From assembly GCF_009749385.1 (NCBI RefSeq), contig NZ_WBIN01000003.1:1-64000 (forward strand): a DNA stretch of 64,000 bases. The letters are read 5' to 3'. Shown in pieces: positions 34,749-39,016 of this stretch. Origin of the DNA: Agromyces allii. Lineage in GTDB: Bacteria > Actinomycetota > Actinomycetes > Actinomycetales > Microbacteriaceae. The notes below the pieces were generated by a model, which saw nothing but the letters and a program-made list of their open reading frames with translations, did not search any database and was not told the origin of the DNA. Position 1 is the stretch's first letter; every line of letters starts with the position of its first letter. Made by a program: the position numbers and the translations under genes.

Positions 34749-36617
<1,869 letters not shown>

Positions 36618-36723: not shown

Positions 36724-36744
36724 CTTGAGTCCCGATGACTCAAG
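36724..36744. promoter_or_regulatory. HAIR element 1 upstream of dnaK
   Basis: CTTGAGT, 7 bp, ACTCAAG is a perfect match to the HAIR consensus, ending about 107 bp before the dnaK start. HspR is encoded by the last gene of the operon. Confidence 0.95.
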
Positions 36745-36786
36745 CCTTGCAGTGCTGTTTTGGCGTGTCAAGTCGAGGACTTCAAA

Positions 36787-36807
36787 CTTGAGCACACTTG
36801 ACTCAAC
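36787..36807. promoter_or_regulatory. HAIR element 2 upstream of dnaK
   Basis: CTTGAGC, 7 bp, ACTCAAC is a second HAIR site with two differences from consensus, 42 bp beyond the first. It lies between the divergent dnaK and alarmone-synthetase genes and might also affect the latter. Confidence 0.9.
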
Positions 36808-36884
36808 TCACAGCGCGCATTCAGTATTCCGGCTCGTCCGCACGGTGCGGTGCGCGGCCCCGTCGCAGCCACTAGCCTGCCGTT

Positions 36885-38099
36885 GTGGACGCGCAGGAGC
36901 AGGAGGAGCGCCTCGTCGCCGCGGAGCTCGACCGGTACGACCGCGAACTGCGGCGGTACCGCAAACTGCGAAGCGGCCTCGAGGCCGACGTCGCGCGACG
37001 GCTCGAGGCCGCCGGGTTCAAGTACTTCCACGTCACCGCGCGCGTGAAGTCGCGCGAGTCCTTCGAGCGCAAGGTGCGCCGGGCACCCGACCGCGAGGTG
37101 CGCGACATCCTCGGCGTGCGGGTGGTCGCCAACTTCGAGGGCGACCTGCCCGGCATGGAGCAGGTCGTGCGCGAGGCGCTCATCGTCGACGACGACTCCT
37201 GGGTCGACAAGTCGGCGCTGCTCCCGCTCGACGCGTTCGGGTACCGCTCGGTGCAGTTCGTCGGACGGGTGCCGGGCGACCGCGTCGGCAGCGGCAGCGG
37301 CAGCGGCAGCGCCAGCAGCAGCGGCGAGGCGGCGAGCGGCGACGACCGCGCCGCCGGCTCGGAGGTCGAGGTCGAGGTCCAGCTGCGAACGGCGCTGTCC
37401 GACACGTGGTCGGAGCTCGAGCACGACTTCCGCTACAAGTCCGCGCGACGCCTGCCCCGCGAGGTCGACCGACTGTTCGCCATCTCGGCGGCACTGCTCG
37501 AGCAGGCCGACGACAACCTCGACCTCATCCGCCGACTGGTCGAGGAGGCGCGCACCGCGACGCCGGTGGTCGGCGACCGCGGCGGCGAGCGCGGGTACAT
37601 CGGGCGGTTCATCCAGTACGACGGCGACTCCCGTTCGCTCGACCAGGTCGTCACGGCCGCGCTCGACGTGCCGTTCGGCACCGTGACCGGATCGGGGCGC
37701 GAGCTCCGCAGCGTCGTGCGCGCCGCCGGATGGCTGCACTACGACGCCCTCGCCGACGGCTTCGCCGAGTTCTCGGAGCACGGTCGCCGCCTCGCGATCG
37801 CGTGCGCCTCCACCACCAACGACATCCTGCTGACCGACGCGGAGCCGCAGCGGCCCGCCCGTTCGTTCCGCGGCATCGGGCTCTACTGGTCCGCACTGGC
37901 CGCGGCCCTCCTCGGCGGCGGGTCGCTCCGCGAGAGCCGAGTGCCCGGCGGGCGGCTCGCCGAGTACCGCACGGTGGCGACCTGGCTCGACGCGCATCCC
38001 GAGGCGTCCGCGCTCGGCGTGCGGAGCCGGTACCAGTCGCTGGCGGCTCCGTCCGGCACGCTCGACGACGCGGGCTACGGCCCGATCGCCCTCGACTGA
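36885..38099 (+). CDS. (p)ppGpp synthetase-like protein with novel C-terminal domain
   Basis: A 404-residue protein whose first half is a RelA/SpoT synthetase domain: TARVKSRESFERKVRR (K55, R58), DILGVRVV (74-81), GYRSVQ (119-124, usual H replaced by Q), EVQLRT (164-169), ELEHDFRYK (177-185). A Gly/Ser insert of about 24 residues from a GGCAGC repeat interrupts it at 135-158. No hydrolase, TGS or ACT domain is present. The C-terminal 215 residues are of unknown nature and make it about twice the size of usual small alarmone synthetases. It is divergent from dnaK with HAIR sites between. GTG 36885 is the start. Toxic alarmone synthetase or normal SAS cannot be distinguished. Confidence 0.8.
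   Translation: MDAQEQEERLVAAELDRYDRELRRYRKLRSGLEADVARRLEAAGFKYFHVTARVKSRESFERKVRRAPDREVRDILGVRVVANFEGDLPGMEQVVREALIVDDDSWVDKSALLPLDAFGYRSVQFVGRVPGDRVGSGSGSGSASSSGEAASGDDRAAGSEVEVEVQLRTALSDTWSELEHDFRYKSARRLPREVDRLFAISAALLEQADDNLDLIRRLVEEARTATPVVGDRGGERGYIGRFIQYDGDSRSLDQVVTAALDVPFGTVTGSGRELRSVVRAAGWLHYDALADGFAEFSEHGRRLAIACASTTNDILLTDAEPQRPARSFRGIGLYWSALAAALLGGGSLRESRVPGGRLAEYRTVATWLDAHPEASALGVRSRYQSLAAPSGTLDDAGYGPIALD
37285..37324 (+). repeat. GGCAGC microsatellite inside the alarmone-synthetase gene
   Basis: Four copies of GGCAGC followed by degenerate GCCAGC/AGCGGC units encode the Gly-Ser insert at residues 135-147. Hexamer changes would keep the frame and alter linker length. Confidence 0.85.
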
Positions 38100-38116: not shown

Positions 38117-38170
38117 GCGGTCGGACCGATCGGGGCGGTCGCACCGATCCGGGCGGTCGCACGACCGTGG
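38117..38170. repeat. Three 18-bp tandem repeats
   Basis: Units starting GCGGTCG (38117, 38135, 38153) are 18 bp long and nearly identical in the first two, degenerate in the third. They fill the gap between the alarmone-synthetase and TSUP genes; no promoter is evident in them. Confidence 0.85.
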
Positions 38171-38248: not shown

Positions 38249-39016
38249 GTGCACCACGTGAACCCCCTCGAGTTCGTGCTGCTCATGGCCGGCGGGGTCG
38301 TCGCTGGGTCGATCAACGCGGTCGTCGGATCGGGCTCGCTCGTGACCTTCCCGCTGCTCATCGCGTTCGGCTACCCGCCCGTGCTCGCGAACGTCACGAA
38401 CAACGTGGGCGTGCTGCCCGCCTCGCTCGCGGCGACCTACGCGAACCGGGCGCAGTTCCGCGGCGAGTGGCGGCGGCTCGGGTTCATCCTCTGCTTCTCG
38501 GCCGCAGGCGGCGTCGCCGGCGCCGTGCTGCTGCTGCAGCTGCCGAGCGAGGCGTTCGACGCGATCGTGCCGGCGCTCATCGTGCTCGCGCTCCTGCTCG
38601 TGGTGTTCGGCCCGTGGATCAAGCGGTGGACCACGCGCCTGCACGGCGGAGCCGAGCACCACGACCATCCGGTCGCCACGGTCGTCGTCGCGGGCCTCAC
38701 CGCGGTCTACGGCGGCTACTTCGGTGCGGCTCAGGGGGTGCTGCTGCTCGCCCTGCTCTCGATCACGATGACCGGCGCGCTCTCGCGGGCGAACGCGTAC
38801 AAGAACGCCATGGCCGCCGTCGCGAACCTCGCGGCAGCCGTCGTGTTCGTCGCGGCCACCGACGTCGCCTGGCCCGCTGCCGCGGCGATCGCGATCGGCT
38901 CGTTCATCGGCGGATCGCTCGGCGGACGCTACGGACGGCACATCCCGCAGACCGCCTACCGCGTCGTCATCGTCGTGGTCGGGCTCGCGGCGCTCGCGTA
39001 CTTCGTGCTCACCTGA
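38249..39016 (+). CDS. TSUP family permease (TauE/SafE-like)
   Basis: A 255-residue membrane protein with about eight helices. FVLLMAGGVVAGSINAVVGS and GSLVTFPLLIAFGYPPVLANVTN form the first conserved half, with the family signature of a G-G-x-G-S/T-x-x-P-like segment; GGYFGAAQGVLLLALLSI starts the second. TSUP members export or import sulfite, sulfonates or organic acids. A sulfur role is possible, but the gene is far from the cys operon and has no linked partner. GTG 38249 or GTG 38258 may be the start. Confidence 0.87.
   Translation: MHHVNPLEFVLLMAGGVVAGSINAVVGSGSLVTFPLLIAFGYPPVLANVTNNVGVLPASLAATYANRAQFRGEWRRLGFILCFSAAGGVAGAVLLLQLPSEAFDAIVPALIVLALLLVVFGPWIKRWTTRLHGGAEHHDHPVATVVVAGLTAVYGGYFGAAQGVLLLALLSITMTGALSRANAYKNAMAAVANLAAAVVFVAATDVAWPAAAAIAIGSFIGGSLGGRYGRHIPQTAYRVVIVVVGLAALAYFVLT

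What the first reader, a model, noticed from the sequence alone, without database searches (positions are those of the whole stretch)
36885..38099. RelA-like alarmone synthetase with a second, unknown domain and repeat-coded linker
The synthetase half has the expected catalytic elements, but the Y-R-S-V-H box reads YRSVQ, a Gly/Ser microsatellite insert splits the domain at 135-158, and about 215 C-terminal residues match nothing I know. Small alarmone synthetases are about 200-260 residues; fused forms such as CapRel carry an antitoxin-like phage-sensing domain. No separate antitoxin is beside it. It starts across from dnaK with HAIR sites between, which could tie it to heat shock.
Basis: partly seen in the sequence, partly recalled or inferred. 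Interest (0 to 1): 0.65.

Follow-up and report, generated by a model that had tools for sequence, protein, structure and literature searches.

The report
Long alarmone synthetase in Agromyces
This is an intact, selectively maintained bacterial stress-signal (alarmone) enzyme with an extra helical tail domain, belonging to a small uncharacterised branch of a known enzyme family; the nearby heat-shock sites belong to the neighbouring dnaK gene, and it lacks the marks of the phage-sensing toxin CapRel.

Summary
The gene is real. Its ORF (36885-38099, 404 aa) has 14 orthologs among 60 Agromyces genomes, and both halves are under purifying selection (dN/dS 0.17 and 0.26). The N-terminal half is a small alarmone synthetase with every catalytic motif; its nearest solved structures are the (p)ppGpp synthetases RelQ, RelP and Rel. 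YRSVQ is not decay: Gln replaces His in 28/28 members of one clade (100/99 support) and in 0/38 other synthetases compared. The Gly/Ser insert is a near-neutral loop of variable length. The C-terminal domain matches no Pfam, NCBIfam or PDB entry. It is shared by distant Microbacteriaceae relatives and is faintly but significantly related (0/150 shuffles) to the C-terminal extension of other long synthetases. Twelve relatives consist of the synthetase alone, at about 200 aa. CapRel membership fails: no YXXY motif, and the synthetase resembles RelQ rather than a toxSAS. The two HAIR sites occur in all 30 Agromyces dnaK promoters examined, 18 from genomes without this gene, so they give no heat-shock link. 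Best reading: a long synthetase of (p)ppGpp or pGpp, with the C-terminal domain an oligomerisation or regulatory module; activity unassayed. A new variant of a known kind.

The parts
36885..38099 (+). Long small-alarmone-synthetase gene, 404 aa, GTG start
   Evidence: ORF; RelA_SpoT E=1.2e-10; orthologs in 15/60 Agromyces genomes, own included; dN/dS well below 1 in both domains
36873..36878 (+). Probable -10 element TAGCCT ending 6 nt before the GTG: leaderless transcript
   Evidence: TA(G/A)CCTGCC right before GTG/ATG kept in 9 of 10 carriers aligned, the tenth reading TACTCTGCC; promoter function inferred
36924..37550 (+). Synthetase domain, residues ~14-222
   Evidence: Pfam; AF2 model pLDDT ~80 over residues 1-110; best PDB matches RelQ 5dec E=5.7e-7 and Rel 8acu Z=14.4
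37239..37256 (+). G-loop G-Y-R-S-V-Q124; Gln where other synthetases have His
   Evidence: Q in 28/28 of clade A+B+M, H in 38/38 of the others compared
37374..37391 (+). Catalytic E-x-Q-x-R-T box, E164 the aligned catalytic Glu
   Evidence: Invariant in the Agromyces group; E, Q and R conserved through the clade
37286..37340 (+). CGGCAG microsatellite coding the Gly/Ser beta-hairpin loop
   Evidence: TRF 8.7 copies; loop dN/dS 1.14 and variable length in orthologs
37590..38096 (+). C-terminal domain, residues 236-404, predicted helical
   Evidence: dN/dS 0.26; shared with L040, L070, L156, L157; profile link to extensions of other long SAS, 0/150 shuffles; model pLDDT low
36724..36744 (.). HAIR (HspR) site 1, belongs to the dnaK promoter
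   Evidence: Present in 30/30 Agromyces dnaK loci
36787..36807 (.). HAIR site 2, 63 bp from site 1, belongs to the dnaK promoter
   Evidence: Present in 30/30 loci, 18 of them from genomes without this gene
36805..36830 (-). Possible SigH-type dnaK promoter (GGAAT-N18-GTT) overlapping HAIR site 2
   Evidence: Read from sequence, conserved in carriers and non-carriers; consensus recalled from memory
34749..36617 (-). dnaK, divergent neighbour

Best explanation
A chromosomal, long-form small alarmone synthetase of Microbacteriaceae, kept at a mostly fixed site in Agromyces. The N-terminal domain transfers pyrophosphate from ATP to the 3'-OH of a guanine nucleotide (GDP, GTP and perhaps GMP), giving (p)ppGpp or pGpp. 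The Gly/Ser stretch is a neutral surface loop. The C-terminal helical domain is a divergent form of the extension found in other long synthetases and most likely serves for oligomerisation or for regulating the synthetase, perhaps in place of RelQ's pppGpp-driven allostery, whose relay residues are missing here. Shown: synthetase domain with catalytic motifs, selection on both domains, clade-wide H-to-Q change, shared C-terminal domain. Inferred: the nucleotide product and the regulatory role.
For: RelA_SpoT match. Closest structures by sequence profile are RelQ/RelP at 1e-14 to 1e-10 against CapRel at 0.17; by fold, RelQ 5.7e-7 and Rel Z 14.4 against CapRel 2.8e-4 and Z 9.8 and FaRel2 Z 7.5. 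RxKxxxSxxxK, DxxGxR and ExQxR are conserved in the clade. dN/dS 0.17 and 0.26. The C-terminal domain is shared across Microbacteriaceae and linked to the extensions of other long SAS with 0/150 shuffles as good. Bare 200-aa relatives inside the same clade sit at a largely shared chromosomal site, next to a penicillin-binding protein and a metallophosphoesterase in the one read. RelQ's N148 and E178 relay is absent (D173, A203; residue roles from PMC5794853).
Against: No activity has been assayed, and the G-loop His that every other synthetase compared carries is Gln here, which could change the acceptor. The C-terminal fold could not be predicted with confidence. Two of four distant full-length relatives lie in mobile or defence-like surroundings, which a housekeeping role does not explain.
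Confidence: 0.62

Rival explanations
1. A CapRel-like fused toxin-antitoxin reached by convergence: the C-terminal domain holds a toxic synthetase in check and lets go on sensing a phage protein.
For: Two-domain layout; patchy presence, 15/60 genomes; one distant relative lies about 2 kb from an AbiU/AIPR gene in an island with an excisionase-like HTH, another about 2.5 kb from a phage integrase; weak PADLOC candidate hit PDC-S33.
Against: No YXXY motif; synthetase closer to RelQ/Rel than to CapRel or FaRel2; bare synthetase relatives with no antitoxin-like neighbour found; C-terminal domain conserved, not hypervariable; 12 of 15 Agromyces copies sit at one fixed chromosomal site beside dnaK.
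Confidence: 0.13
2. A heat-shock alarmone synthetase: HspR represses it through the HAIR sites shared with dnaK, so protein damage raises (p)ppGpp.
For: Divergent position in 12 of 15 carriers; HAIR site 2 ends as little as 38 bp before the start codon in two carriers.
Against: The same two sites with the same 63-bp spacing precede dnaK in 18 genomes lacking the gene, and the carriers' gene has its own -10 next to the start.
Confidence: 0.1
3. A catalytically dead or altered synthetase (His to Gln in the G-loop) whose C-terminal domain does the work, or which uses a different acceptor nucleotide.
For: Q124 is fixed in the whole clade.
Against: All other catalytic residues are conserved and the synthetase is the most constrained part (dN/dS 0.17); relatives that kept only the synthetase also carry Gln.
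Confidence: 0.12

Closest known systems
actRel / RelS (C. glutamicum cg2324, 38.9 kDa) and RelZ (MS_RHII-RSD, M. smegmatis)
   Same: Actinobacterial synthetases longer than RelQ/RelP, with an extension after the synthetase; the RelZ-type DUF429-synthetase fusions found here and their kin are strong profile relatives of ours (E to 1e-32).
   Different: Ours falls outside their clade (group D, 97/85) in its own clade (100/99), has Gln instead of His in the G-loop, and its extension is longer with only marginal direct similarity to theirs (2/150 shuffles).
RelQ (SAS1/YjbM) and RelP (SAS2/YwaC)
   Same: Same synthetase fold and catalytic motifs; best PDB matches.
   Different: 404 aa with a second domain; YRSVQ; the pppGpp relay residues N148 and E178 of RelQ are D173 and A203. 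The genome carries a separate RelQ-type gene and a long Rel.
CapRel (SJ46) fused toxin-antitoxin
   Same: N-terminal synthetase fold followed by a C-terminal domain.
   Different: No YXXY, C-terminal part predicted helical with no pseudo-zinc-finger seen, G-loop Gln, synthetase only remotely similar.
Group C long SAS (L168-L170, L094, L083; Klebsiella plasmid pZZW20-3.5K protein)
   Same: Synthetase plus C-terminal domain; that of the group C loci is colinear with ours, profile score above all 150 shuffles. The Klebsiella protein joins group C on the synthetase tree.
   Different: H in the G-loop, separate branch of the tree, no known function.

Membership tests
RelA/SpoT synthetase superfamily (small alarmone synthetases) | RelA_SpoT domain with RxKxxxSxxxK, DxxGxR, GYxS and ExQxRT motifs | tested here: met
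RelA/SpoT synthetase superfamily (small alarmone synthetases) | His in the Y-x-S-x-H G-loop motif | tested here: not met
   Q124 in all clade members, H in 38/38 others compared; a common feature, not known to be essential for membership
RelA/SpoT synthetase superfamily (small alarmone synthetases) | Synthesis of (p)ppGpp or pGpp | not testable with these tools
   needs a nucleotide assay
CapRel fused toxin-antitoxin | YXXY motif in the C-terminal antitoxin that blocks the ATP site (PMC9712102) | tested here: not met
   no Y..Y anywhere in the protein
CapRel fused toxin-antitoxin | toxSYNTH domain related to translation-targeting toxSAS | tested here: not met
   RelQ 8e-15 against CapRel 0.17 by profile; RelQ 5.7e-7 against CapRel 2.8e-4 by fold
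CapRel fused toxin-antitoxin | Pseudo-zinc-finger beta-sheet antitoxin domain | tested here: inconclusive
   C-terminal model helical but pLDDT mostly under 50
CapRel fused toxin-antitoxin | tRNA pyrophosphorylation triggered by a phage protein | not testable with these tools
   needs experiment
actRel / RelS-RelZ subgroup | Falls in the clade of RelZ-type and related actinobacterial long synthetases | tested here: not met
   A+B+M is its own clade (100/99) and group D another (97/85); group D stands in for actRel through its DUF429-fused members
actRel / RelS-RelZ subgroup | Extension after the synthetase homologous to theirs | tested here: inconclusive
   direct A-D score matched or beaten by 2/150 shuffles; indirect through group C 0/150
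RelQ / RelP | Single-domain protein of 200-260 aa | tested here: not met
   404 aa with a conserved second domain
RelQ / RelP | pppGpp allosteric relay (N148, E178 in BsRelQ, PMC5794853) | tested here: not met
   D173 and A203
HspR (heat-shock) regulon | HAIR sites attributable to this gene | tested here: not met
   same sites in 18 genomes without the gene

The most novel reading that the evidence does not exclude
The A+B+M clade is a separate alarmone synthetase lineage whose G-loop Gln marks a changed acceptor specificity (for example GMP to pGpp, or a non-guanine acceptor), and whose C-terminal helical domain is a sensor for a signal not known to act on alarmone synthetases, possibly a phage or envelope signal, and was discarded in the 200-aa branch.
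Probability: 0.15. Interest if true: 0.6.

Novelty: new variant of a known kind. Interest (0 to 1): 0.33.

Why it matters
Extensions after the synthetase domain are common in actinobacterial alarmone synthetases (RelS, RelZ and relatives), and I found no description of what they do in the papers read. This clade is a natural experiment: near relatives with and without the domain, all with the same unusual G-loop residue. That makes the role of the extension, and of the G-loop His/Gln position, directly testable. If it proves ordinary, the lesson is that a two-domain synthetase beside dnaK need be neither a toxin-antitoxin nor a heat-shock gene.

Tried and rejected
CapRel membership: rejected. 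Heat-shock regulation inferred from HAIR sites: rejected as evidence, not excluded as fact. Pseudogene or decaying enzyme: rejected. Search for a downstream split-off C-terminal gene in two 200-aa relatives: none. Search of viral contigs with the C-terminal domain: no relative; with the whole protein: only remote synthetases sharing residues ~5-185. Phage and plasmid collections: only synthetase-level similarity, E 1e-16 to 3e-10. AlphaFold of the whole protein and of residues 185-404: C-terminal part too uncertain for a fold search; deeper alignments were not possible because the predictor takes only window, the search for related loci and the DNA search sequences. In the Foldseek and VIA lists for the full model no known fold was matched by the C-terminal domain, which is not evidence of a new fold. 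Direct profile link between our C-terminal domain and group D or E: weak; group C is the bridge. One search held an error (groups C and E were not built), repeated correctly. AU test does not reject A+B without M as one clade (p 0.09), so loss of the domain in the 200-aa branch is favoured, not proven.

Full report
What is there. The ORF at 36885-38099 is real and complete. The window is Agromyces: close orthologs were found only in named Agromyces records and in 15 of 60 genomes of the genus, own included. In 12 of the 15 the gene lies directly across from dnaK, in one about 2 kb away behind an inserted M1 peptidase gene, and in two elsewhere. The start codon, GTG or ATG, is preceded in the 10 carriers aligned by a motif TA(G/A)CCTGCC (TACTCTGCC in one) that ends just before it, as in leaderless actinobacterial transcripts (the promoter reading is inference).

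Selection. Over 11 Agromyces copies dN/dS is 0.17 for the synthetase, 0.26 for the C-terminal domain and 1.14 for the Gly/Ser loop. The hexamer repeat is therefore a neutral spacer in a beta-hairpin, with length differing between species, not a functional element.

The synthetase. Pfam RelA_SpoT E=1.2e-10. A clade profile prefers RelQ and RelP (8e-15 to 1e-10) over CapRel (0.17) in the PDB sequences. The AlphaFold model of this half (pLDDT about 80 over residues 1-110) matches RelQ at 5.7e-7 and Rel at Z 14.4, CapRel at 2.8e-4 and Z 9.8, FaRel2 at Z 7.5. R53, K55, S59, K63, D74, G77, R79, Y120, S122, E164, Q166 and R168 are conserved through the clade. The only departure is Q124 where His is usual: Gln in 28/28 clade members, His in 38/38 others including CapRel. 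This is an old, fixed change. RelQ's allosteric relay residues N148 and E178 (roles from PMC5794853) are D173 and A203 here, so RelQ-type activation by pppGpp is not expected.

The relatives. Searches of 1,578 genome slots (and others; many genomes recur) gave: A, the Agromyces group; B, four full-length relatives at 34-41% identity (L040, L070, L156, L157); M, twelve 200-aa synthetases at 39-49% without the second domain; C, D and E, other long synthetases with H in the G-loop. A+B+M forms one clade (100/99), and M groups with A and one B row (98/95), although a tree with A+B together is not rejected (p-AU 0.09). Group D includes DUF429-synthetase fusions of RelZ type. In nine of the 12 M loci the downstream flank is the same; in the one read it holds a convergent metallophosphoesterase and a penicillin-binding protein, with no antitoxin-like partner (gene names read from the sequence).

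The C-terminal domain. It has no match in Pfam, NCBIfam or the PDB sequences. Within the clade it is unmistakable: a B-only HMM finds the A members at 1e-38 to 1e-43. Against the extensions of group C the profile score is 26.8, with the best of 150 column shuffles at 19.3 and colinear alignment over 111 columns; against group D it is marginal (2/150); C, D and E are linked to each other with 0/150. So it is a divergent version of a widespread but unnamed extension of long alarmone synthetases. A review describes RelS only as having an extended synthetase domain (PMC7591505). The model suggests helices but confidence is too low to name a fold.

CapRel. Its defining YXXY motif (PMC9712102) is absent, the synthetase is of the RelQ/Rel type, relatives exist as bare synthetases, and the second domain is conserved rather than hypervariable. 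The one pointer the other way is that two of the four B relatives lie in mobile or defence-like surroundings: L070 about 2 kb from an AbiU/AIPR gene (1.4e-27) with an excisionase-like HTH upstream, and L040 about 2.5 kb from a phage integrase; L156 sits among ordinary genes.

Heat shock. Both HAIR sites, with an exact 63-bp spacing, are found upstream of dnaK in 30 of 30 Agromyces genomes examined; 18 of these lack the synthetase anywhere. They belong to dnaK. Shared control is possible but nothing here points to it.

Other alarmone enzymes. The genome has two further RelA_SpoT matches, one in a 758-aa frame (C14, taken as the long Rel) and one of RelQ size (C16), so this is a third, accessory source.

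Verdict. Ordinary in kind, with a clade-specific active-site substitution and a conserved unnamed domain. Product and regulation remain to be measured.

Noticed in passing
window 38117-38162: Short 18-bp tandem repeat (2.6 copies, GCGGTCGCACCGATCCGG) just after the stop codon, before a TauE-like permease gene at 38249.
   Followed up: no
L155 4025-5608: In G028 an M1-family peptidase gene is inserted between dnaK and the synthetase, the only such break in the pair seen.
   Followed up: partly
L152 13313-14812: AIPR/AbiU gene (PADLOC 1.4e-27) in a small island with an excisionase-like HTH gene, an ion channel gene and the full-length synthetase relative L070.
   Followed up: partly
L106 436-1572: A 3.5-kb ColRNAI-type Klebsiella plasmid carries a 378-aa long alarmone synthetase as its largest gene, annotated hypothetical.
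   Followed up: no
L104 3902-4921: A Mycobacterium abscessus prophage (prophi68-1) carries a long alarmone synthetase next to its holin gene.
   Followed up: no
L018 and L019: Alarmone synthetases fused to an N-terminal DUF429 domain, the layout reported for RelZ as RNase HII plus synthetase; Pfam calls the N-terminal part of L018 DUF429 (5e-28).
   Followed up: partly
window 36724-36830: Paired HAIR sites with invariant 63-bp spacing plus a SigH-like GGAAT-N18-GTT precede dnaK across Agromyces.
   Followed up: yes
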